64,000 nucleotides of DNA, taken from Globodera rostochiensis. Taxonomy: Eukaryota > Nematoda > Chromadorea > Rhabditida > Heteroderidae. Below, piece after piece: positions 9,700 through 59,768 of this stretch. Below the pieces are notes generated by a model that did not search any database, was not told where the DNA came from, and was given only the letters and a program-made list of their open reading frames with translations. Location: contig JAEVLN010000003.1 of NCBI GenBank assembly GCA_018350325.1, forward strand, positions 4,354,745-4,418,744. Direction: 5' to 3'. Both the position numbers and the translations under genes were made by a program. The stretch's first letter is position 1. The number at the start of each line of letters is the position of its first letter.

Positions 9700-12074
9700 A
9701 TGGCGTCGACGTCGTCCAGTAAATTTTGGAAATTTTGTGCCCGCAAAAAAATTATATTAAAAATTTTGCTTCTGCTGGGAGTCTGTTCGACTTTTTTTGA
9801 GTTTTCGCAATTTCAGGCCGGCCCAGCCAGAGCTCCAAGCTGTTGAACGATTACCGCAACAACCGTATTGCCAATCTTCAACTCGCCGATTTGGGCAAAA
9901 ACGTCCTGGAGTTTGCGCGGGACCCGCTCGGTTCAAGGTGGGAATTGTTGCGTGAACGATTTGAACAGCCCGGGCTGGCGAAGCTAAGCGATTGAACAAA
10001 ACATTAAATGTTATGGCCTTAAAATGTGTTCAGTTCATAAAAAATGATCGTTTTTGAGCTGGTGCGGAGGGGGAGGGGAAAGTCGAATCTTAGGAGTGAA
10101 TTTTGAATTTTTGACCCGATTTGTTAAGATTTTCAAGGAAAATTTAAAATTGGAAATTTAAATGAATCTTGTTAAAAAAATTGGGCAAAAAATTGTAAAA
10201 GTGATAAATAAAAGGTCCCCCCCCCCCTCGTGTTTTTTTTGTCGAATTTTATTTCGGGGGGGGGGGGGGGGGGTCGCACACATTTAATAAAAGCGTGGAA
10301 AGTATTTTAGATGGATGTGTAAATCGACCTAAAATTGCACCAAAAATTCAATAAATGATCAAAACAAACTAAAAAAAACAGACTGCCAACCCTTTTGGCC
10401 AGCTTTTTACCCCTAATTTGTAAGAATCGACTTTTTTTTTGGCTTGGCCCTCCCTCCCCCCGAAATTTTTTTCTGGCTACGGGCCTTGGTGAGCGATGTG
10501 CAAAATGTCCGATAGCCTTTTGAGTTGTCTTTTTTTACTGTAATTTTCGGTCATTTTTTCTTTAGTAAATTTGTCAAAAAATGGACATTCAAATTTCATA
10601 AAAAATCGAAGAGTTTGACGAATCCGGATGCGGTTTTTCCCCCCGATGCGGATTCAGCTTCTCTGCTATGGCATTATAACATCCCGGAATACATTCAGTT
10701 ACACCGATTTAAACCCGTTTTGGGCTTTTTAGACCAAACCGGTTTCGGAAATTTTCATCTCGCCGAGTATTAAAAGTTACCGAGACCGTTTATCTTTTAA
10801 GATACTTATGCGTAGAATAAAAGAATAGGCAAAGAGGTAACCCCGGCGGATGGGACTCGAACTCACGAAGCGGAATCACTCGTTTCCTTACAGAAGCCAA
10901 ATCAAAAACGATCATTTTTAATGCATTGATCCAATACCAGTATTTGGTTAAAAAAAGCATTTCGCCAGGTTCATCAATCAAAAGTTGGGGCGTGCCAATC
11001 CGACGGAGGAGGCTCACCTGATGGACGCACTGCGTGGCCACGTGTTGACATTAGCCACGCACATGTGCGGCTGTCACGTGATCAAAGCGGCGTTGGAATC
11101 GTTGAACAGAATGTCACAGATTGAGGCAAAATCATTACGAATATTCGATCAAAAAATGTAATTTCATTTAGATAATCATGAGTTATCGGCGCAAGTCATT
11201 CCCCTGTCCCTCAATAAGTACGGCTGTCGGGTGATCCAACGTGTGCTTGAACACTGCACGGAGCAGCAAAAGCGTCCCATGTTGGAACAACTGCTTGGCA
11301 ATGTGCTCTCTTTGACCACTGATCAGGTGGTTGAAGGGCGGGCGGGGATTCAATTTTAAGCACTTGAATCATAACCATTTTTGTTCAAGTACGGCAGCTA
11401 CGTGATCCAACACGTGATTAAGCATCGACTACCTGAGGATCGGGAGCGCATTGTGCGAAGTCTGCACGATGATGTGCTCATTTTTAAAATCTTCAAAAAA
11501 TTTCCTTTTGGCACCTATCGGCGCCGTCGGACTTCTCTCTCCATTCCTAACCACAAAAGGCCATTGTCCCAATATAAATTTTCAAATATAAATTAGGTAA
11601 ATATTTAAATTTTGCCCTTAAAAGATTACCTCCATGTCCGTCCATGAATGCGGTAGTCGGGTGATCGAACAACTTTGTGATCGAACATGTGATTGAACAT
11701 GGACTGCCCGAAGACCGGGAGCGTATTGTGCGCAGTCTGCAGGGCAACATTATTATGAATAACGGACATCTCAACTCCTTCTGCAGCGTAATCCACAAGT
11801 GTTTCATCTTTGGGACGATGGAGCAGAGAAATGCGCTGATCGACGAGTTTTGTGCGGAGTGAGTTGTTTCCCGAGAACCCCAAACCGTTCATTTTTGTTG
11901 CTTTCTGTTCAGCAACGGCTCTGGCAGCCCGCCTTTGTTGGAAATGATAAAGCATCCGTTCGGCAACAAAGTTGTGCAGAAAATGATGGACGTTGCGGAC
12001 TTTGCGCGTCGTCAGAAAATTATGTTGGCCATCAAAACTGCTCCGCTTAAAAGCACGGCAAAAAGATCATCGGA
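9700..12074 (+). pseudogene. Pumilio/PUF family gene copy A, probably a pseudogene
   Basis: Exon-like blocks are 9700-9718 (MASTSS start), 9817-9937 (LLNDYRNNRIANLQLADLG), 10969-11125 (FINQKLGRANPTEEAHLMD), 11172-11326, 11390-11473, 11625-11858 and 11913-12074. They encode PUF repeats of the YGSYVIQHVIKH type, ending with the C-terminal repeat HPFGNKVVQKMMDVAD. PUF proteins bind 3'UTRs and repress or destabilise mRNAs. Two lesions suggest decay. The block at 11172 is one base shorter than in copies B and C, so the preceding GC-AG junction loses frame. At about 11670-11685 two repeats are fused with a frameshift, GSRVIEQ running into an out-of-frame VIEHVIEHG. It carries one intron (11327-11389) absent from the other copies and lies in opposite orientation to them. 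Confidence 0.75.
10000..10960. other. Intron of PUF copy A with long G-run and tRNA-like fragment
   Basis: The intron between 9938 and 10968 contains an 18-base G-run (10256-10273), C-runs near 10217, and a tRNA-derived fragment at about 10847-10905. The fragment's minus strand has the B-box-like GAGTTCGAGTCCC, but no full cloverleaf is visible. Confidence 0.5.
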
Positions 12075-12189
12075 GTGAGTTTTGTGTTAGCTTTTCTGCG
12101 CCTTTTGCATTTGGTTGGGGGAATAATTCGTTTTCCCTAACCCATGGCCATTGGAAAATTCGGTGTAAGCGTTAAGGCTGTCTGTCGGT

Positions 12190-40257: not shown

Positions 40258-42540
40258 GAGAAAATTTTAAAATTTTGTCTGTTTTTCTTAAGATATTTAT
40301 CATTTGCACTAAAATTTAAGATTTCGAAAAAAATTGTTTGTAGAATTTTTTAGAAATTTCTGTTCTGATTTGACAGAATTTCTGGTCTTTTGGGCACCAG
40401 AATTCTGTTTTTTGGTTTTTAAAAAGGGGACCAGAATTCCGTTTCTAATTTGAATTCTCAATTTTATTTTCTACTGACGAATTCGTAATCAGTGCATCAA
40501 AAACATATTTCAGACAATTTAAAAAATATTTTCTATAAATTTTGTCCAAAAGGGTTCCCTCTATGGTTTTTTCAACTTTGAAGAGCCACAACTTTTGACA
40601 AAGTGGGTTCCGACAATTTTTGCGGTTTCGTACTCATCTCGACGACAGAAATCGATTGGTATATGATTCTCAAATTTCGAGCGACTTACGTAAACTCCTC
40701 TGTACCCGTTCACTTTTTTTTTGTACTTTTGTTTTTTTAAATTTAATTATAATTTTATTAATTTAAAAATTGCAAAATAATTCGTTTCTTTCATTTCTTA
40801 TAAATTCGTTTGTTTGTTGTTTTTTTTATGGCGATAAACTGTGATTGAAATGCTTTCAGCAGAACAAAAAGACTTTTATCAAATCTAACGGAGGTAAAAT
40901 AAAGAAAACTAAAGAGTCCGACGAACAACAGAAATTAAATCATTAATTAAAAGCGTGACATTATCCAATTTCGGTGCCGCCCCTTTGCTGCTGTACTTTA
41001 ACGGTTGTAAGCGATCTGAATCAAATAAACAGATCAGCACAAAATTTTTAAGCCATACGTTGAAAAAATTGCCAACCGAAAATATCGGGTTGACCGCGTA
41101 AATCGTGACATTAATTTTGTCGGGTGTTCTTAGTAGAGACCGGACCCAAAACAAAAATTCTATTTCCCGATTTTGAACCTAAAATTAAAAAGCGCAGAAA
41201 AGCTAACACAAAACTCACTCCGATGATCTTTTTGCCGTGTTTTTAAGCGGAGCAGTTTTGATGGCCAACAGAATTTTCTGACGACGCGCAGAGTCCGCAA
41301 CGTCCATCATTTTCTGCACAACTTTGTTGCCGAACGGATGCTTCATCATTTCCAACAAAGGCGGGCTGCCAGAGCCGTTGCTGAACAGAAAGCAACAAAA
41401 ATGAACGGTTTGGGGTTCTCGGGAAACAACTCACTCCGCACAAAACTCGTCGATCAGCGCATTTCTCTGCTCCATCGTCCCAAAAATGAAACACTTGTGG
41501 ATTACGTTGCAGAAGGAGTTGAGATGTCCGTTATTCATAATAATGTTGCCCTGCAGACTGCGCACAATGCGCTCCCGGTCCTCGGGCAGTCCATGCACAA
41601 TCACATGTTCGATCACGTAGCTGCCAAACTTATCCGTGACCAAAGTGGAAACATTCGCGTGCAAACTGCGCACAATGCTCTCCCGGTCTTCAGGCAGTCC
41701 GTGCTCAATCACATGTCTGATCACATGGCTGCCATATGTATCCGTGGCCAAAGAGAGCACATTGCCAAGCAGTTGTTCCAACACCGGACGCTTTTGATGC
41801 TCCGTGCAGTTGTCAAGCACACATCGAATCACCAGACTACCGTATTTATGGACGGACATGGAGGTGATCTTTTGGGGGAGAAAAGATTAAATATTTTATT
41901 TTATTTTAGATCGCATTTTGGGAATTTATATTTGACAAATTTGAAAATTCCGCCCAACACGGTCGGTTAACCGAACCATAACCGGCCTTTTTGGTCCGAA
42001 AACCGGGGTCGTAAAACCGGCTTAACCGGAAAGAAACCGGGTTTTCCGGTTTCGATCGTAAAAAGCTAAATAAATAGTACACGATAATGATTTTTATGGG
42101 AGTTTGTTGAGAAATGAAGTGTATCAGACATTAACAAAGTGATTATTGCATTTGTTAAGCTTTTTTTCCAAAAAAATGTTCGATTTTTAGGGCTGCATTT
42201 TCTGTTTTTATTGTTAAGAAATTTCAAAAATGCCATTTTTTGAGAATTCTGCTGGGGGGAGGTCGGGGTGCCGATAGGCGCCGCGAAAGAAAATTTTATG
42301 ATTTTTAAGTTTTTAGCAATGGGAGAGGTCCCGAGATTTTTTTAATCTGTTTTTGTTAAAAAAATTAATCCAAAAAATTCAATCCTTCGAAGGACTGAAA
42401 TGTTCAAAAAATACAGATCCGGGTTCGGAATTGGTCGAAATGGAGGTCAGATTTGTCGGGATCTACGCCCCCGAGTACCCCTAGAAACACCTTTTAATCG
42501 ACTTTAAGACACAATTATGAAGATTTAAAAGTAAGCACAT
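40258..42540. repeat. Segmental duplication, left copy (partner 49148-51140)
   Basis: The blocks are near identical base for base (for example 40909-41154 against 49806-50051) and include the 3' part of PUF copies B and C plus 3' flank. The right copy lacks one 108-bp PUF repeat inside the exon and lacks about 190 bp corresponding to 42190-42380. High identity implies recent duplication or gene conversion. Confidence 0.85.
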
Positions 42541-45064
42541 TCTCGTGCAGACTGCGCACAATGCGCTCACGGTCTTCGGGCAGTCCATGCACAATCAGAT
42601 GTTCGATTACGTAGCAGCCATATTGATCCATGACCAAAGTGAGCACATTCTCGTGCAGACTGCGGACAATCCGCTCCCGGTCTTCGGGCAATCCATGCTC
42701 AATCACATGTCTGATCACGAGGCTGCCATACTTATCCGTGACCAAAGTGAGCACATTGCCAAGCAGTTGTTCCAACATGGGACGTTTTTGATGCTCCGTG
42801 CAGTGTTCAAGCAGACGTTCGATCACCCGACAGCCGCATTCATGGAGAGAGAGGGAGGTGATCTTTTGAGGGAGGAATATTATATTTTATTTTAGATGGC
42901 ATTTTGGGGTCAGCACATTCTCGTGCAGACTGCGCACAATGCTCTCCCGGTCTTCGTGCAGTCCATGCACAATTAGATGTTGGATGACGAAGTTCCCATA
43001 TTGATCCATGACCAAAGTGAGCACATTCTCGTGCAGACTGCGGACAATCCGCTCCCGGTCTTCGGGCAATCCATGCTCAATCACATGTTGGATGACGAAG
43101 TTCCCATATTGATCCATGACCAAAGTGAGCACATTGCCAAGCAGTTGTTCCAACATGGGACGCTTTTGATGCTCCGTGCAGTGATCAAGCACACATCGAA
43201 TCACCAGACTACCGAATTTATGCCGGGACAGGGAAAGGACTTGCGCCGATAACTCATTGCCTATCTAAATAACATTTTTTTACATATGCAGTCAACCATT
43301 TGAGTCTCCAGGCAAAGGTGACACTTTAGTACCAAGGTCTAAAAACTGGATTAAAAAGCAAGCAACAAATTTTTTTGACGGCGTTTTCAGCACTAAAGAA
43401 ATGGGGGGGGGGGGTCCAATCCAGGCACGTATTTAGGATCCGGTAGACGCCGCCAGGGGCGTAGCCAGAAAAAAATTTCGGAGGGGGGAATTGATCCATC
43501 TGAGCGTGGCGCTCAGATGGCAATCCCGTTTGAGCGCCAGGAGCGGCCCGGCGGTGCCGATAGGCGCCGCCGGGAAAAATTTTGATTTTGATGGCAATTT
43601 GTTAAGAAAATTGGTCAAAAAATTGTAAAACTGCAAAACAATAGGGTCCCCCTATGGTTTTTTTCCTTCAAATTTTCTCTTTGGGGGGGGGGGGGGGGGG
43701 TACGTGCCCCCTCGTACCCCCCCCCCCCTAAATACATGCCTGGTCTAATCGTCAAACGAATTTAAATGATTTTGCCTCAATCTGTGACATTCTATCCACC
43801 GATTCTAACGCCTTCCGGATCACGTGACAGCCGTTTATGTGCAGGGCCAATGTCAACACGTGGCCGCGCAATGCGTCCATCAGGTGAGCCGTCTCCGTCG
43901 GATTGGCACCCTCCAACTTTTGTTGGATGAACCTGGCGAAAAGTTAATGCTAATTCTATAATTAGGTAATCAACAATTGCTTTCTTTGTTTGGGCTAAAC
44001 TTAGCAATGATTTGATTAAAAAGCTTGACAATTCTTGAATTAACGGATTTCTTGGGGAGTGAACAATTTGTTGAAAAAGAAATTCGACGAAACCCATTCG
44101 GTCGCAAATAAAAAGGATTCAAAACATGAAACTTTTCTTTGGTATCGGCGCCAGATTCGGCACGGTAAAAAATTCACCGCTGTAAAAATGGGTAAAATAA
44201 ATTAAATCCCGGTTCCCGTACCGGTTGGACCGGAACTAACCGTAAAAAAGCCCTAAGGATGGAATTTTTGCGATAAAAATCAATTTGGTTGTGGTGTAGG
44301 GGCAGTCTAGTGTGGCCTTATTTGTTAGAAAATTGGTCCAAAAATTACGAATGTTGCAAAACAAAGGGTCCCCCGTAAACAAAAAATGAAATGAAAAACT
44401 TTAAATTTGTTTTTAAATTGGAAAAAGTTAAAGAATTCTTAGAATTGTTTACACACCACCGTAAACGTTCAGAGAAAGTCAGAAAAAATATTTTACATGG
44501 TCGGGAAACTGAACCCCACCCCACCCAACCCAGACTTAAACTGTTCCCACCACGCACCAACTACACCACCCCCAAATCGTATTTTCTCGCTCAAAAATTC
44601 TATTCTTAGGGATGTATTTTGATTTTGCCTTTTCAAAAACCGAGACCGGGATTCAAAAAACTGGGAGTTTCCCGACCGGTCACGACTAACTCTACTGAAA
44701 CCCCACAAAAAGTAACATTTTCAAAAAATGCAGCATCGGCCCTTCCAAAATCAAGAAGCACTATTTTCGGCAAATTCTCCAATTCCAAAACTGATTTGGC
44801 GGGCTGTTCAAATCGTTCACGCAACAATTCCCACCTTGAACCGAGCGGGTCCCGCGCAAACTCCAGGACGTCATTGCCCAAATCGGCGAGTTGAAGATTG
44901 GCAATACGGTTGTTGCGGTAATCGTTCAACAGCTTGGAGCTCTGGCTGGGCCGGCCTGAAATTGCGAAAACTCAAAAAAAAACTTTAAGCCTCTGAAGAG
45001 GTAAATTTATATCAGGGGGTTAATTTTGCGAGGGCCAAAATTTACTGGACGACGTCGACGCCAT
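41219..45064 (-). CDS. Pumilio/PUF family RNA-binding protein copy B with about 13 PUF repeats
   Basis: The phase-consistent exons are 45046-45064 (MASTSS), 44835-44956 (SSKLLNDYRNNRIANLQLAD), 43776-43932, 42917-43264 (three repeats plus a short lead-in), 42539-42862 (exactly 108 codons, three repeats), 41435-41868 and 41219-41380 (HPFGNKVVQKMMDVAD). Counting 36-residue repeats of the form VLTLVMDQYGNFVIQHVIEH gives about 13, against eight in canonical PUF proteins. The extra repeats come from three tandem, phase 0-0 cassettes that begin ITS(L/M)S after an intron. PUF proteins bind single-stranded RNA, about one base per repeat, usually in 3'UTRs. The junction after 43776 needs a GC-AG intron. 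The C-terminus ends in a short KRSS tail and the final exon is unresolved. Almost no N-terminal extension is present. Confidence 0.8.
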
Positions 45065-45120: not shown

Positions 45121-46920
45121 ATGTCAGCCGAACAGTTTGAACGTGTCGAATCTAAAACAATTTTGGGACTAAAAAATATGCATACGAATGGAGAGGTTAC
45201 GCCATCCGAACCCCTCCAACTACTTGTAACTTCGCTTTCAACCAATCCAAGTTACTGCAACAAAACGATTTTTGGAAAATTTGGATTTGAAATTGTCGAA
45301 TTCGGGTCCGGAATTGATTGAAAAGAAAGTCAGATTCGGATTCTACGCACCGAAACCCCCTAATCGAAAATTTGGAAAAATTGAAGAATATCAAAAACTT
45401 TTGTTTTTCCTAATATTATATATCAATCAACTCCCCTCGTCGAGACAAATCGAATGGTATCAAAATTTTTATTAGGAAACCACCACTGACCAAAAAATAG
45501 GTAAAATCACTCATATTGGCATTCAAAATTAGGAATTAGTTGATAGAAAATCAAAATTGAGAATTTAAAGTGGTTTTTAAACCGGTTTAAATTTTTGAAA
45601 ATTCAGGAAAAGAAACTTTTTTAAACATCAAAGGCAGATAGGGCAAAAGTTAGACAGTAAGGTGGAAAATAGCAGCCAAAGTACCGCACACTCGACTACG
45701 GCGGCCAATAGGTGGGGCGAGACTCCGGGCTCCGGAAGAAGTCCGCGCGTGACCCGGCTGGGGGTCCCCGCGCGCTCGCCCCCCAGTGGCGCTCGTCAGA
45801 CTTCTTCCTCCGCCCTCCGTCTCGCCCCACTACTTGCTCCGTCATCGCATGCTCGCTGTTGGCGGGCCGTTACACGGCCTTTCATTATTATATCCGGCTT
45901 TGGTACTTAAAAGTCGTTTTTTTGCTTAATTTTCAAAAATTTAAACCGGTTCAAAAACCGTTTTAAATTCTCAATTTTTAATTTTTATTGACGAATTCGT
46001 AATCAGTGCATCAAATACACATTTTCAGACAATTTTTAGAAGAAAAAATTTGTTCTACAAATTTTACCAAAAGGGTCCCCCCTATGGTTTTTCCAAATTT
46101 GAACCGGTTCAAAGTGGTTTCCTAATAAAAATTTTGATACCATTCGATTTGTCTCGACGAAGGGAGTTGATTGATATATAATATTAGGAAAAACAAAAGT
46201 TTTTGATATTCTTCAATTTTACCGAAAATTTTTTGATTTTTTTTTAAAAAATTAAAAAATACACTCCCTAAAAACCGACTCTCAGCGCCCTCACTTCAGT
46301 GCCAGCAATTGAAAGTTTATAACTTTTTGCCAAGCGGTTCAATTCCTTTTTAAATCAATTTTTGTTTGTTTGATTTAGTTGAGTTTAGCGTGCCCAGTGG
46401 TTCGACAGTGAATTCCAAATAAATGTTTTGAACTCGTTGGACATTTCGAATTTTCAACTTCTAAATACTTTAGACCTGTACCTTATCCGTTTTGCTAAAA
46501 AAAAATGCATTTTTAGGCTTGCCTCGAAAATTACAGATTTTTTGAATTGTTCGAATTTTTTACTTTTTCAGGTATTTTACGTATTTTACATCAGTATGTG
46601 GGTCGAAATGCGCTAAAAATAAGGATTTTAAACTTTTTGGAATTTACAGAATTTTCAACAGTAGCACTGCGAAATCACTTACTGTCGAAACCAACCACTG
46701 TCGATAGCACAAAAATAAAGCGCTAAATTTAAGCAAAAAAAAAAAAACGCGTTGTCCCGACAATTTCTCGAGAACGAAAATCAGACGCTTTCCCTCAAAT
46801 TGTTTTTATACTTTTTCACCAAAAACCCAAAGCTAACTCATTGCAAACCTTGTGAATGATTTGCTGGCCGTTCAGAAAATTGCGAATGAAACGGTCGAGC
46901 ATTTTGAACGATTGCGTTAA
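45121..46920 (+). CDS. Uncharacterised small gene head-to-head with PUF copy B
   Basis: The ATG at 45121 lies 56 bp from the divergent PUF start at 45064. Exon 1 encodes MSAEQFERVESKTILGLKNM and ends at a GTAACT donor near 45225. A last exon-like block (about 46840-46920) encodes NDLLAVQKIANETVEHFERL and ends LR with TAA. A middle block (about 46752-46800) encodes ALSRQFLENENQTLSLK. The same modules recur at 53901-54449. The short helical fragments suggest a small coiled-coil protein, but I do not recognise the family. Exon joints are not resolved. Confidence 0.45.
45230..46750. other. Long intron/intergenic part of the PUF-neighbour locus
   Basis: It contains a member of the dispersed GATTCGGATTCTACG repeat family (about 45300-45360) and an inverted pair: 45560-45610 (GTGGTTTTTAAACCGGTTTA) against 45935-45990. 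A GC-rich segment at 45690-45890 has no convincing exon structure. Confidence 0.45.
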
Positions 46921-49147: not shown

Positions 49148-51140
49148 GAGAAAATTTTAAAATTTTGTCTGTTTTTCTTAAGATATTTATCATTTGCACT
49201 AAAATTTAAGATTTCGAAAAAAATTGTTTGTAGAATTTTTTAGAAATTTCTGTTCTGATTTGACATAATTTCTGGTCTTTTGGGCACAGAATTCTGTTTT
49301 TTGGTTTTTAAAAAGGGGACCAGAATTCCGTTTCTAATTTGAATTCTCAATTTTATTTTCTACTGACGAATTCGTAATCAGTGCATCAAAAACATATTTC
49401 AGACAATTTAAAAAATATTTTCTATAAATTTTGTCCAAAAGGGTTCCCTCTATGGTTTTTTCAACTTTGAAGAGCCACAACTTTTGACAAAGTGGGTTCC
49501 GACAATTTTTGCGGTTTCGTACTCATCTCGACGACAGAAATCGATTGGTATATGATTCTCAAATTTCGAGCGACTTACGTAAACTCCTCTGTACCCGTTC
49601 ACTTTTTTTTTGTACTTTTGTTTTTTTAAATTTAATTATAATTTTATTAATTTAAAAATGTTTTTAATGCAAAATAATTCGTTTCTTTCATTTCTTATAA
49701 ATTCGTTTGTTTGTTGTTTTTTTTATGGCGATAAACTGTGATTGAAATGCTTTCAGCAGAACAAAAAGACTTTTATCAAATCTAACGGAGGTAAAATAAA
49801 GAAAACTAAAGAGTCCGACGAACAACAGAAATTAAATCATTAATTAAAAGCGTGACATTATCCAATTTCGGTGCCGCCCCTTTGCTGCTGTACTTTAACG
49901 GTTGTAAGCGATCTGAATCAAATAAACAGATCAGCACAAAATTTTTAAGCCATACGTTGAAAAAATTGCCAACCGAAAATATCGGGTTGACCGCGTAAAT
50001 CGTGACATTAATTTTGTCGGGTGTTCTTAGTAGAAACCGGACCCAAAACAAAAATTCTATTTCCCGATTTTGAACCTAAAATTAAAAAGCGCAGAAAAGC
50101 TAACACAAAACTCACTCCGATGATCTTTTTGCCGTGTTTTTAAGCGGAGCAGTTTTGATGGCCAACAGAATTTTCTGACGACGCGCAGAGTCCGCAACGT
50201 CCATCATTTTCTGCACAACTTTGTTGCCGAACGGATGCTTCATCATTTCCAACAAAGGCGGGCTGCCAGAGCCGTTGCTGAACAGAAAGCAACAAAAATG
50301 AACGGTTTGGGGTTCTCGGGAAACAACTCACTCCGCACAAAACTCGTCGATCAGCGCATTTCTCTGCTCCATCGTCCCAAAAATGAAACACTTGTGGATT
50401 ACGCTGCAGAAGGAGTTGAGATGTCCGTTATACATAATAATGTTGCCCTGCAGACTGCGCACAATGCGCTCCCGGTCTTCGGGCAGTCCATGTTCAATCA
50501 CATGTTCGATCACGAAGCAGCCATACTGATCCGTGGCCAAAGAGAGCACATTGCCAAGCAGTTGTTCCAACACGGGACGCTTTTGATGCTCCGTGCAGTT
50601 GTCAAGCACACATCGAATCACCAGACTACCGTATTTATGGACGGACATGGAGGTGATCTTTTGGGGGAGAAAAGATTAAATATTTTATTTTATTTTAGAT
50701 CGCATTTTGGGAATTTATATTTGACAAATTTGAAAATTCCGCCCAACACGGTCGGTTAACCGAACCATAACCGGCCTTTTTGGTCCGAAAACCGGGGTCG
50801 TAAAACCGGCTTAACCGGAAAGAAACCGGGTTTTCCGGTTTCGATCGTAAAAAGCTAAATAAATAGTACACGATAATGATTTTTATGGGAGTTTGTTGAG
50901 AAATGAAGTGTATCAGACATTAACAAAGTGATTATTGCATTTGTTAAGCTTTTTTTCCAAAAAAATGTTCGATTTTTAATTCAATCCTTCGAAGGACTGA
51001 AATGTTCAAAAAATACAGATCCGGGTTCGGAATTGGTCGAAATGGAGGTCAGATTTGTCGGGATCTACGCCCCCGAGTACCCCTAGAAACACCTTTTAAT
51101 CGACTTTAAGACACAATTATGAAGATTTTAAAAGTAAGCA
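49148..51140. repeat. Segmental duplication, right copy (partner 40258-42540)
   Basis: Near-identical counterpart of the left copy, including the 3'-flank block with the open frame RTPDKINVTIYAVNPIFSVG, which is conserved in both copies but has no recognised domain. It differs mainly by deletion of one 108-bp PUF repeat and of the 42190-42380 segment. Confidence 0.85.
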
Positions 51141-55582: not shown

Positions 55583-57096
55583 TGGGCGAAATGTCGTATT
55601 TTGGGTTAGTGGGCGAAATGTCGTATTTTGGGTTAGTGGGCGAAATGTCGTATTTTGGGTTAGTGGGCGAAATGTCGTATTTTGGGTTAGTGGGCTAAAT
55701 GTCGTATTTTGGGTTAGTGGGCGAAATGTCGTATTTTGGGTTAGTGGGCGAAATGTCGTATTTTGGGTTAGTGGGCGAAATGACGTATTTTGGGTTAGTG
55801 GGCGAAATGTCGTATTTTTGGGTTAGTGGGCGAAATGTCGTATTTTGGGTTAGTGGGCGAAATGTCGTGTTTTGGGTTAGTGGGCGAAATGTCGTATTTT
55901 GGGTTAGTGGGCTAAATGTCGTATTTTGGGTTAGTGGGCGAAATGTCGTATTTTGGGTTAGTGGGCGAAATGTCGTATTTTGGGTTAGTGGGCTAAATGT
56001 CGTATTTTGGGTTAGTGGGCGAAATGTCGTATTTTGGGTTAGTGGGCGAAATGTCGAATTTTGGGTTAGTGGGCGAAATGACGTATTTTGGGTTAGTGGG
56101 CGAAATGTCGTATTTTGGGTTAGTGGGCGAAATGTCGTATTTTGCGTTAGTGGGCGAAATGTCGTATTTTGGGTTAGTGGGCGAAATGTCGTGTTTTGGG
56201 TTAGTGGGCGAAATGTCGTATTTTGGGTTAGTGGGCGAAATGTCGTATTTTGGGTTAGTGGGCGAAATGTCGTATTTTGGGTTAGTGGGCGAAATGTCGT
56301 GTTTTGGGTTAGTGGGCGAAATGTCGTATTTTGGGTTAGTGGGCGAAATGACGTATTTTGGGTTAGTGGGCGAAATGTCGTATTTTGGGTTAGTGGGCGA
56401 AATGTCGTATTTTGGGTTAGTGGGCGAAATGTCGTGTTTTGGGTTAGTGGGCGAAATGTCGTATTTTGGGTTAGTGGGCGAAATGTCGTGTTTTGGGTTA
56501 GTGGGCGAAATGTCGTATTTTGGGTTAGTGGGCTAAATGTCGTATTTTTGGTTAGTGGGCGAAATGTCGTATTTTGGGTTAGTGGGCGAAATGTCGTATT
56601 TTGGGTTAGTGGGCGAAATGTCGTATTTTGGGTTAGTGGGCGAAATGACGTATTTTGGGTTAGTGGGCGAAATGTCGTATTTTGGGTTAGTGGGCGAAAT
56701 GTCGTATTTTGCGTTAGTGGGCGAAATGTCGTATTTTGGGTTAGTGGGCGAAATGTCGTATTTTGGGTTAGTGGGCGAAATGTCGTATTTTGGGTTAGTG
56801 GGCGAAATGACGTATTTTGGGTTAGTGGGCGAAATGTCGTATTTTGGGTTAGTGGGCGAAATGTCGTATTTTGGGTTAGTGGGCGAAATGTCGTATTTTG
56901 GGTTAGTGGGCGAAATGTCGTGTTTTGGGTTAGTGGGCGAAATGTCGTATTTTGGGTTAGTGGGCTAAATGTCGTATTTTTGGTTAGTGGGCTAAATGTC
57001 GTATTTTTGGTGAGTGGGCGAAATGTCGTATTTTTGGTTAGTGGGCGAAATGTCGTATTTTGGGTTAGTGGGCGAAATGTCGTATTTTGGGTTAGT
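55583..57096. repeat. Satellite of about 56 copies of a 27-bp unit
   Basis: Head-to-tail copies of GGGCGAAATGTCGTATTTTG followed by GGTTAGT, mostly identical, with recurrent single-base variants (TGACGTA, TCGTGTT, GGGCTAAA). Because 27 is a multiple of three and the unit lacks stops, long frames stay open on both strands (period nine residues, for example VSGRNVVFW). A one-base insertion near 55815 shifts the plus frame. I treat the frames as a by-product of the repeat. Confidence 0.95.
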
Positions 57097-57558: not shown

Positions 57559-59768
57559 GGATTCGGCACCGGTCCAGGTTCGGCACCGGTCTAGGTTCGG
57601 CACCGGTCTAGGTTCGGCACCGGTCTAGGTTCGGCACCGGCCCAGGTTCGGCACCGGCCCAGGTTCGGCACCGGCCCAGGTTCGGCACCGGTCTAGGTTC
57701 GGCACCGGCCCAGGTTCGGCACCGGTCTAGGTTCGGCACCGGTCTAGGTTCGTCACCGGTCTAGGTTCGGCACCGGCCCAGGTTCGGCACCGGCCCAGGT
57801 TCGGCACCGGTCTAGGTTCGGCACCGGCCCAGGTTCGGCACCGGCTCAGGTTCGGCACCGGTCTAGGTTCGGCACCGGTCTAAGTTCGGCACCGGTCTAG
57901 GTTCGGCACCGGCCCAGGTTCGGCACCGGCCCAGGTTCGGCACCGGCCCAGGTTCGGCACCGGCCCAGGTTCGGCACCGGCCCAGTTTCGGCACCGGCCC
58001 AGGTTCGGCACCGGCCCAGGTTCGGCACCGGCCCAGGTTCGGCACCGGCCCAGGTTCGGCACCGGTCTAGGTTCGGCACCGGTCTAGGTTCGGCACTGGT
58101 CTAGGTTCGGCACCGGCCCAGGTTCGGCACCGGTCTAGGTTCGGCACCGGTCTAGGTTCGGCACCGGTCTAGGTTCGGCACCGGTCTAGGTTCGGCACCG
58201 GCCCAGGTTCGGCACCGGCCCAGGTTCGGCACCGGTCTAGGTTCGGCACCGGTCTAGGTTCGACACCGGTCTAGGTTCGGCACCGGCCCAGGTTCGGCAC
58301 CGGCCCAGGTTCGGCACCGGTCTAGGTTCGGCACCGGCCCAGGTTCGGCACCGGCCCAGGTTCGGCACCGGTCTAGGTTCGGCACCGGTCTAGGTTCGGC
58401 ACCGGTCTAGGTTCGGCACCGGCCCAGGTTCGGCACCGGCCCAGGTTCGGCACCGGCCCAGGTTCGGCACCGGCCCAGGTTCGGCACCGGCCCAGGTTCG
58501 GCACCGGCCCAGGTTCGGCACCGGCCCAGGTTCGGCACCGGCCCAGGTTCGGCACCGGCCCAGGTTCGGCACCGGCCCAGGTTCGGCACCGGCCCAGGTT
58601 CGGCACCGGCCCAGGTTCGGCACCGGCCCAGGTTCGGCACCGGCCCAGGTTCGGCACCGGTCTAGGTTCGGCACCGGTCTAGGTTCGGCACTGGTCTAGG
58701 TTCGGCACCGGCCCAGGTTCGACACCGGTCTAGGTTCGGCACCGGCCCAGGTTCGGCACCGGCCCAGGTTCGGCACCGGTCTAGGTTCGGCACCGGCCCA
58801 GGTTCGGCACCGGCCCAGGTTCGGCACCGGTCTAGGTTCGGCACCGGTCTAGGTTCGGCACCGGTCTAGGTTCGGCACCGGCCCAGGTTCGGCACCGGCC
58901 CAGGTTTGGCACCGGCCCAGGTTCGGCACCGGCCCAGGTTCGGCACCGGCCCAGGTTCGGCACCGGCCCAGGTTCGGCACCGGCCCAGGTTCGGCACCGG
59001 CCCAGGTTCGGCACCGGCCCAGGTTCGGCACCGGTCTAGGTTCGGCACCGGTCTAGGTTCGGCACTGGTCTAGGTTCGGCACCGGCCCAGGTTCGGCACC
59101 GGCCCAGGTTCGGCACCGGTCTAGGTTCGGCACCGGTCTAGGTTCGGCACTGGTCTAGGTTCGGCACCGGCCCAGGTTCGGCACCGGTCTAGGTTCGGCA
59201 CCGGTCTAGGTTCGGCACTGATCTAGGTTCGGCACCGGCCCAGGTTCGGCACCGGCCCATGTTCGGCACCGGTCTATGTTCGGCACCGGTCTAGGTTCGG
59301 CACCGGTCTAGGCTCGGCACCGGTCTAGGTTCGGCACCGGCCCAGGTTCGGCACCGGCCCAGGTTCGGCACCGGTCCAGGTTCGGCACCGGCCCAGGTTC
59401 GGCACCGGCCCAGGTTCGGCACCGGTCTAGGTTCGGCACCGGCCCAGGTTCGGCACCGGTCCAGGTTCGGCACCGGTCTAGGTTCGGCACCGGTCTAGGT
59501 TCGGCACCGGTCTAGGTTCGGCACCGGCCCAGGTTCGGCACCGGTCTAGGTTCGGCACCGGTCTAGGTTCGGCACTGATCTAGGTTCGGCACCGGCCCAG
59601 GTTCGGCACCGGCCCATGTTCGGCACCGGTCTAGGTTCGGCACCGGTCTAGGTTCGGCACCGGTCTAGGTTCGGCACCGGCCCAGGTTCGGCACCGGCCC
59701 AGGTTCGGCACCGGCCCAGGTTCGGCACCGGTCTAGGTTCGGCACCGGTCTAGGTTCGGCACCGGTCT
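57559..59768. repeat. GC-rich satellite of about 130 copies of a 17-bp unit
   Basis: Tandem GGTTCGGCACCGGTCTA and its variant GGTTCGGCACCGGCCCA. The two types and rarer CACTGGTCTA/CACTGATCTA variants alternate in recurring blocks (compare 58030-58100, 58640-58700 and 59030-59070), suggesting higher-order units. The 17-bp period makes a 51-bp cycle, so all minus frames stay open with peptides such as PNLGRCRTWAGAEPGPV. Composition is far above the regional GC content. Confidence 0.95.

What the first reader, a model, noticed from the sequence alone, without database searches (positions are those of the whole stretch)
41219..45064. PUF protein with about 13 repeats built by in-frame amplification of a three-repeat exon
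Copy C, 9 kb away, has the canonical eight PUF repeats. Copy B has three consecutive phase 0-0 exons of about 108 codons, each carrying three repeats and separated by introns with the same GTGCT donor and AAAAG|AT(C/T) acceptor. Because exon ends fall exactly between repeats, gain or loss of a cassette preserves the fold. Base-contact triplets differ among the added repeats (N-F-Q, S-L-R, C-Y-E, S-Y-E), so the target could be a longer RNA motif than the usual 8-9 nt. PUFs of eight repeats, and Puf-A/Nop9 types of about eleven, are established; a classical PUF expanded by exon cassettes is not one I know.
Basis: partly seen in the sequence, partly recalled or inferred. Interest (0 to 1): 0.87.

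Follow-up and report, generated by a model that had tools for sequence, protein, structure and literature searches.

The report
Thirteen-repeat PUF in nematode gene swarm
A potato cyst nematode carries dozens of copies of a normally scarce RNA-reading protein whose eight reading modules have multiplied to as many as sixteen, with the letter-reading residues varied and a front end that looks like an address label for mitochondria, which suggests an animal counterpart of the large RNA-reader families of plant organelles.

Summary
Copy B reads as an intact gene (window 46902-41215, minus strand, 8 exons, 569 aa) with 13 PUF repeats; copy C has 8, and my model of C equals a deposited Globodera rostochiensis protein at 389 of 389 residues, including the cassette splice junction that B shares. 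B is no lone oddity: the genome holds 47 copies of the family's second leader exon, all on contigs that also hold PUF genes. Of 45 Globodera homologues listed, 27 carry 9-16 repeats; of 75 others, 71 carry exactly 8. Repeats multiply as exon cassettes, within one exon (ten in one reading frame) and as fused domains. Fold residues are held while the three base-contact residues are among the most variable, yet stay in the recognition alphabet (Q/E/R/K at the third in 111 of 112 repeats). Globodera mtDNA is multipartite. I propose a PPR-like, probably mitochondrial PUF family of variable length. Import, expression and RNA targets are untested; cassette splice sites are weak; part of the leader shows no purifying selection; B is absent from the deposited proteins retrieved.

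The parts
46849..46902 (-). Copy B exon 1: leader part 1, MLDRFIRNFLNGQQIIHK
   Evidence: the same residues open the deposited protein P0029
45046..45151 (-). Copy B exon 2: leader part 2 and the MASTSS stretch
   Evidence: acceptor ttttag, donor gtaaat
44835..44955 (-). Copy B exon 3: stretch before repeat 1 and its first half
43776..43932 (-). Copy B exon 4: end of repeat 1 and the R3-type repeat 2; GC donor
42917..43264 (-). Copy B exon 5: cassette of three repeats (R5,R6,R6), phase 0-0
42863..42916 (-). 54-nt intron, gtgctg...caaaag, resembles a shortened cassette intron
42539..42862 (-). Copy B exon 6: cassette of three repeats (R5,R6,R6), phase 0-0
41869..42538 (-). 670-nt cassette intron, 99-100% identical to that of copy C except for 186 nt present only in B (42190-42375)
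41435..41868 (-). Copy B exon 7: four repeats (R5,R6,R6,R7), phase 0 to 2
41215..41380 (-). Copy B exon 8: last repeat (R8) to the stop of this model; the deposited copy C continues for a further 17 aa
50112..54431 (-). Copy C: 7 exons, 389 aa, 8 repeats, identical to deposited G. rostochiensis A0A914GZM1 (P0029, 406 aa) over 389 of 389 modelled residues
9801..12075 (+). Copy A: short PUF gene with a reduced last cassette; P0053 (289 aa) appears to be its deposited form

Best explanation
Copy B is a member of a Globodera PUF family that has expanded twice over: in gene number (47 copies of the second leader exon in this genome) and in repeats per protein (up to 16 in deposited relatives). Unequal recombination between 108-nt repeats and between cassette introns adds and removes repeats in frame. 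Each repeat keeps its fold residues while its base-contact triad is re-sorted, so each protein would read its own RNA, up to about one base per repeat. An N-terminal leader most likely carries these proteins into mitochondria, where they would bind, protect or process transcripts of the multipartite Globodera mtDNA, as PPR proteins do in plant organelles. Shown by sequence: exon and repeat counts, intact frames of B and C, conserved fold residues with variable contact residues, leader composition. Inferred: splicing of B, RNA binding, mitochondrial import, the targets, the recombination mechanism.
For: Intact frames, and copy C identical to a deposited protein over 389 of 389 residues; B and C cassette introns 100% over 321 nt and 99.4% over 164 nt. 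27 of 45 Globodera homologues carry 9 or more repeats against 1 of 75 others. Ten and eight repeats in single reading frames. Contact positions: mean entropy 1.82 bits in 61 R6 repeats and 2.08 in 51 R5 repeats; leaving out the positions by which I sorted the repeats, the other positions average 0.81 and 1.17, and 13 of 2925 and 51 of 3654 position triples do as well. Q/E/R/K at the third contact in 111 of 112, although only 34-35% of one-step changes stay in that set. Leader: all 47 second-exon matches on contigs with PUF genes; 39 deposited leaders average 0.59 acidic and 6.0 Arg/Lys residues and a hydrophobic moment of 0.617, which 4.8% of shuffles reach on average; first leader exon pN 0.133, pS 0.407, 7 sequences. 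PUF fold modelled with confidence for copy C. Multipartite mtDNA in Globodera (PMC5011991, abstract and passages).
Against: No transcript, protein, localisation or binding data were available. The second leader exon (pN 0.173, pS 0.159, n=11), the repeat-1 exon (0.117, 0.090, n=8) and the R1/R3 exon (0.136, 0.150, n=9) show little or no purifying selection among paralogues. At R6 contacts pS is high too (pN 0.357, pS 0.421), so that ratio is raised but below 1. Cassette donors GTGCT(T/G) and acceptor AAAAG are weak; the donors depart from the published CAGG[T|C]AAGT (PMC4901422, passages). None of four B-specific peptides occurs in the 144 proteins retrieved. No organelle-targeting predictor was run; the only contrast for the leader was 75 PUM homologues; the mtDNA was not found in this assembly. 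Mitochondrial function rests on leader chemistry and a genus-level coincidence.
Confidence: 0.55

Rival explanations
1. Same expanded RNA-reading family, but cytosolic: the leader is not a presequence (or translation starts at the inner Met), and the proteins regulate nuclear mRNAs, for example in the germline or in sex determination, as C. elegans FBF and PUF-8 do.
For: The known nematode PUFs are cytosolic regulators (recalled; the abstract lines on PUF-8 and FBF-2 of PMC6351103 were seen in the listing). 32 of 39 deposited leaders have an inner Met before the Ala-Ser stretch. The second leader exon shows no purifying selection.
Against: The first leader exon is conserved (pN 0.133, pS 0.407) and the inner Met is replaced by Thr or Ala in 7 of 39 leaders. 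A deposited ordinary Pumilio of G. rostochiensis (P0063, 8 repeats) has no such leader.
Confidence: 0.28
2. Largely non-adaptive tandem amplification: a repeat-rich gene family inflated by unequal crossing over, with B a recent and perhaps unexpressed by-product.
For: PUF-derived arrays with broken frames exist on C9 and C18; B is absent from the deposited proteins retrieved; some exons have pN about equal to pS; copy A is reduced.
Against: Frames are open through up to ten repeats; R6 repeats have pN 0.151 against pS 0.279 overall; the contact residues stay in the recognition alphabet.
Confidence: 0.13
3. B is expressed, but its weak cassette splice sites are skipped, so that the protein has 10 or 7 repeats and the cassettes are alternative exons.
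For: Exons 5 and 6 are phase 0-0, so skipping keeps the frame; donors and acceptors are weak.
Against: The same donor and acceptor are used in the deposited model of copy C, itself a prediction; the homologous donor is GTGAGT or GTGGGT in L030.
Confidence: 0.2
4. Assembly artefact: cassettes or the whole B copy created by mis-joined repeats.
For: B and C lie in a tandem duplication (ten shared blocks of 61-300 nt at 89-100%, D4-D13), and B is not among the deposited proteins retrieved.
Against: Like repeats within B differ (80-93% identical), B has 186 nt of intron that C lacks, and deposited relatives have equal or higher repeat counts.
Confidence: 0.06
5. Secreted effector family delivered into the plant.
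For: Local tandem duplication is common in G. rostochiensis gene families, effectors included (PMC4901422, passages).
Against: The leader has no hydrophobic core (highest 12-residue Kyte-Doolittle mean 1.22 on average, range 0.47-1.86) and averages 6 basic residues.
Confidence: 0.03

Closest known systems
Pumilio / PUM-HD (PUF) proteins, e.g. human PUM1, Drosophila Pumilio, C. elegans PUF-8
   Same: Repeat sequence, recognisable repeat types, fold (copy C model against Drosophila Pumilio 3h3d: TM 0.88 by target length), base-contact triads
   Different: Some canonical repeats missing, R5/R6 repeats multiplied so that many members have 9-16, dozens of copies, a leader; Arg at the third contact is common
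Puf-A/Puf6 and Nop9 (11-repeat PUF-like, recalled; PMC2656619, passages, gives Puf-A six SMART repeats; structures 4wzr and 5wtx listed)
   Same: More than eight repeats in the solved structures (recalled)
   Different: Divergent nucleolar proteins (recalled); the Globodera repeats are Pumilio-type and their number varies from gene to gene
Engineered nine-repeat PUF (5ykh, 5yki)
   Same: Extra repeats in a Pumilio frame; best PDB match of the 16-repeat relative P0026
   Different: Man-made; here natural and longer
Plant PPR proteins (recalled)
   Same: Large gene family, variable repeat number, one-base-per-repeat code, presequence
   Different: Unrelated fold; organelle function shown for PPR, only proposed here
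KRAB zinc-finger arrays (recalled)
   Same: Tandem modules gained and lost by unequal exchange, contact residues most variable
   Different: DNA readers

Membership tests
PUF (Pumilio/FBF) family | Tandem ~36-aa Puf repeats above the Pfam cut-off | tested here: met
   Cassette reading frames 99.7-114.6 bits against a cut-off of 26.3; P0029 218.6 bits
PUF (Pumilio/FBF) family | Crescent of three-helix repeats | tested here: met
   P0029 (copy C) model, mean pLDDT 83.2, pTM 0.75; all 50 PDB matches listed (of 83 at E up to 0.001) are PUF proteins.
Classical PUM-HD | Exactly eight repeats R1-R8 in canonical order | tested here: not met
   B has 13; C has 8 but by my comparison in the order R1,R3,R5,R6,R5,R6,R7,R8
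PUF (Pumilio/FBF) family | Sequence-specific single-strand RNA binding | not testable with these tools
   Triads fit the published code in many repeats; no binding data
Puf-A / Nop9 type | Closest relatives are Puf-A or Nop9 | tested here: not met
   Best sequence and structure matches are Pumilio; PF22493 (NOP9-like) hits also occur in ordinary Pumilios such as P0068
Mitochondrial presequence protein | Basic, acid-poor, amphipathic N-terminus with Arg near a cleavage point | tested here: met
   39 leaders; composition heuristics only, no predictor; second leader exon not conserved by codon test
Mitochondrial presequence protein | Import into mitochondria | not testable with these tools
   No localisation data
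PPR-like organelle RNA-reader family (analogy) | Many genes, variable repeat number, diversified contact residues | tested here: met
PPR family (membership) | PPR repeat sequence | tested here: not met
   Pfam gives PUF and lists no PPR family

The most novel reading that the evidence does not exclude
An animal has evolved its own organelle RNA-reader swarm out of Pumilio: dozens of mitochondrially imported PUF proteins with up to 16 repeats, with triads for all four bases including natural cytosine readers, co-evolving with a multipartite mitochondrial genome and rebuilt continually by repeat-level recombination, so that gene copies as young as B and C already differ by five repeats.
Probability: 0.4. 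Interest if true: 0.93.

Novelty: new variant of a known kind. Interest (0 to 1): 0.82.

Why it matters
PUF proteins are held to be an almost fixed eight-repeat design: 71 of the 75 listed homologues not named as Globodera have exactly eight. A genus that has multiplied both genes and repeats gives natural long PUFs to compare with engineered ones, a test of whether one base per repeat holds beyond nine, and candidate natural cytosine readers where none was known (PMC8384837, passage). If the leaders work, it would supply trans-acting factors for the multipartite mitochondrial genome of Globodera and a second origin of a PPR-like system.

Tried and rejected
Literature: ten searches of the held library (two found nothing, 36 was on mtDNA, 46 on mitochondrial PUFs). 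One paper holds both Globodera and pumilio, a microRNA review; its two passages do not concern a Globodera PUF. The G. rostochiensis genome paper PMC4901422 has no 'pumilio' in its main text (passages seen). PMC4654594 (passages) reports several Puf3 duplications in worms, with proteins tending to eight repeats. Absence is claimed only for this library and these searches, mostly judged from listings.

Mitochondrial DNA was not found in the assembly with the COX1 family, so predicted RNA motifs could not be matched to mt transcripts. The codon test of the leader was split: exon 1 conserved, exon 2 not. The script stopped on a pattern that matched nothing, so R7 and R8 were not tested for selection. 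The GC donors were counted with a pattern that demands a following Ala codon, so the 25 are biased towards GC. The invariance of His24, Asp29 and some other residues in R6 (and of two in R5) is built into the patterns with which I sorted the repeats; the entropy test was therefore repeated without those positions and still holds. Heterodera could not be checked: none is named among the 120 rows or the 31, and whether the database holds that genus is unknown. Full coverage of the PUF clusters was not possible: searches scored only 150 of 682, 309 and 339 candidates.
Full report
What and where. The window is G000:C23:4354745-4418744 of a 92.6 Mb, 80-contig genome. Of the 40 best exon-to-protein rows shown, 16 match deposited Globodera rostochiensis proteins at 97.5-100%, and window copy C is identical to G. 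rostochiensis A0A914GZM1 (P0029) over 389 of 389 modelled residues. The organism is therefore the yellow potato cyst nematode or a very near relative.

Copy B. On the minus strand eight exons (46902-46849, 45151-45046, 44955-44835, 43932-43776, 43264-42917, 42862-42539, 41868-41435, 41380-41215) give 569 residues without an internal stop. A repeat profile finds 13 repeats in B and 8 in C; B's twelfth (R7) is weak at 7.3 bits. In Pumilio terms, by my own comparison, B reads R1, R3, then R5-R6-R6, R5-R6-R6, R5-R6-R6-R7, R8. Exons 5 and 6 are phase 0-0 cassettes; exon 7 runs from phase 0 to phase 2. Exon 4 ends in a GC donor, a type reported as frequent in Globodera (PMC4901422, passages). The two cassette donors (AAT|GTGCTG, AAT|GTGCTT) are weak against the published CAGG[T|C]AAGT, and the acceptors (CAAAAG|ATC) look weak too. 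In their favour, the deposited model of copy C uses the same donor and acceptor, and at the homologous place relative L030 has GTGAGT and GTGGGT. The deposited model is itself a prediction.

How young it is. The cassette intron of B matches that of C at 100% over 321 nt and 99.4% over 164 nt, apart from 186 nt present only in B. Yet coding repeats of the same type in B and C are 81-94% identical, with one pair at 99%. The repeats therefore differ more than the intron beside them, which points to exchange of repeats between copies rather than slow mutation; this is inference. The 54-nt intron between exons 5 and 6 looks like a shortened copy of the longer cassette intron.

The family. PF00806 gave 682 candidate places in this genome, 150 of them scored and all 150 matching; a repeat-1/3 query gave 146 matches with 150 of 309 candidates scored; a cassette query gave 166 matches with 150 of 339 candidates scored. 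They lie in clusters on C18, C23, C28 and C80, with single places or small groups on C8, C9, C20 and C44. A leader query gave 81 matches at E up to 0.01 from 91 candidates, all scored. By my count 47 cover the second leader exon: C8 1, C18 6, C23 9, C28 16, C80 15; the other 34 cover mainly the first. These are exon copies; not each need be an intact gene, and 4 of the 47 matches span a TGA. Of the 120 database proteins listed for B (of 360 hits), 45 are named as Globodera (G. rostochiensis or G. pallida). Of these 27 have 9 or more repeats, the maximum being 16, and 15 have fewer than 8, some of them evidently partial models. Of the other 75 (many without a named organism) 71 have 8, three have 7 and one has 9. 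The count is conservative for this family: P0029, with 8 repeats, counts as 7 at the threshold used. An ordinary Pumilio of G. rostochiensis is among the deposited proteins (P0063: 747 aa, 8 repeats, no leader).

Three ways of growing. Cassette exons: B, L029, L027 and L030. Repeats inside one exon: L009 has ten repeats and L031 eight in one open frame, so there high counts do not depend on a splicing assumption. Fused domains: L025, L031, L032 and L033 read R1-R3-R5-R6(n)-R7 followed by R2-R3-(R4)-R5-R6(n)-R7, by my reading of the exons. On C9 and C18 PUF-derived repeats form arrays with broken frames, e.g. 106-nt units x 16.7 in L010.

Selection on the repeats. From 154 ungapped repeats of 25 bits or more (four array loci and three overlapping loci left out) I sorted 65 as R6 and 52 as R5 by pattern; 37 others were not used. 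61 and 51 are distinct. In R6 overall pN is 0.151 and pS 0.279; at the three contact positions pN is 0.357 and pS 0.421, elsewhere 0.129 and 0.271. In R5 the contacts have pN 0.415 and pS 0.264, elsewhere 0.211 and 0.402. So pN/pS at contacts is 0.85 and 1.57 against 0.48 and 0.52 elsewhere. Contact positions have mean entropy 1.82 bits in R6 and 2.08 in R5. Without the positions used for sorting, the rest average 0.81 and 1.17, and 13 of 2925 and 51 of 3654 position triples do as well. The third contact is Q, E, R or K in 111 of 112 repeats, although only 34-35% of one-step amino-acid changes would stay in that set. The base-reading residues thus vary within their alphabet while most of the scaffold is held: the mark of changing specificity rather than decay. 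These repeats are related by descent and probably exchange, so the counts are not independent events.

Bases read. The published code has C/Q for A, N/Q for U, S/E for G, and no natural triad known to be specific for C; engineered cytosine readers prefer Arg at the third contact, with an effect that depends on repeat and context (PMC8384837, passages). Here 8 of 61 R6 and 17 of 51 R5 repeats carry Arg there; B has four such triads in its cassettes (S-L-R three times, S-H-R once) and C-H-R in repeat 2. Whether they read cytosine is untested.

The leader. Many deposited members begin like P0038, MINRFIRNFLNGQHIICKVQQIQAVRVAFLHQCAKNVCPAAVLSCGACMASSSS, most with Arg in place of the last Cys. My pattern found a leader in 39 of 69 Globodera proteins retrieved by then. 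Their mean length is 49.6; acidic residues average 0.59 (none in 22), Arg+Lys 6.0, the best 18-residue hydrophobic moment 0.617 (reached by 4.8% of shuffles on average), and there is no signal-peptide-like core. 21 of 39 end in Ala-Arg-Met before the Ala-Ser stretch; 32 have an inner Met there, and in 7 it is replaced by Thr or Ala. The 75 other homologues average 3.69 acidic residues in their first 48. The first leader exon is conserved (pN 0.133, pS 0.407, 7 distinct sequences); the second is not (pN 0.173, pS 0.159, n=11), nor are the repeat-1 exon (0.117, 0.090, n=8) and the R1/R3 exon (0.136, 0.150, n=9). A leader search, limited to proteins of about 330-1050 aa, returned 31 proteins, all Globodera with PUF domains. 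In the copy C model the leader is a low-confidence helix (residues 2-36) followed by a loose stretch, while the PUF part is confident (mean pLDDT 83.2 overall). The 16-repeat P0026 has confident PUF stretches but pTM 0.42 overall, so its long-range shape is not established.

Mechanism. I read this as a mitochondrial presequence on an RNA-reading superhelix of adjustable length. Globodera species have multipartite mtDNA: several small circles in G. pallida and G. rostochiensis, two large ones in G. ellingtonae (PMC5011991, abstract and passages), five in G. vulgaris (PMC10973440, listing only). A swarm of sequence-specific RNA binders is what such a genome could use for transcript ends, stability or translation. 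This step is inference; import, expression and targets are unshown, and a cytosolic germline role remains a serious rival.

Verdict. The repeat expansion is real and general in the genus as far as two species show it; the one gene given is a young and typical example. It is a new variant of the PUF kind: the family is known, but a genus-wide swarm with 9-16 Pumilio-type repeats and a presequence-like leader did not turn up in the ten searches of the held library.

Noticed in passing
L010 4312-6071 (C9), similar arrays in L011, and L023 235-3908 (C18): PUF-derived tandem arrays with broken frames (106-nt units x 16.7 on C9; 53-, 105- and 156-nt units on C18): a satellite that seems born from a protein repeat.
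   Followed up: partly
window 55583-57096 and 57562-59765: Two large minisatellites, 27 bp x 56 and 17 bp x 130; the 27-bp one is open in more than one frame on both strands.
   Followed up: no
window 9801-12075 (copy A): Reduced relative in which a cassette appears cut and fused; P0053 shows the join HDDITSMSVHECDRERIVRSLQ.
   Followed up: partly
L009 2137-6197 (C8): A lone family member off the clusters with a leader and ten repeats in one exon, several with the same triad (S-H-K, S-H-Q); possibly an old or little-exchanged copy.
   Followed up: partly
window 42190-42375: 186 nt in the cassette intron of B that copy C lacks; origin not examined.
   Followed up: no
window 50112-50140 and 41215-41240: The deposited copy C continues 17 residues past the modelled stop, so a further 3' exon is likely there and perhaps in B.
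   Followed up: no
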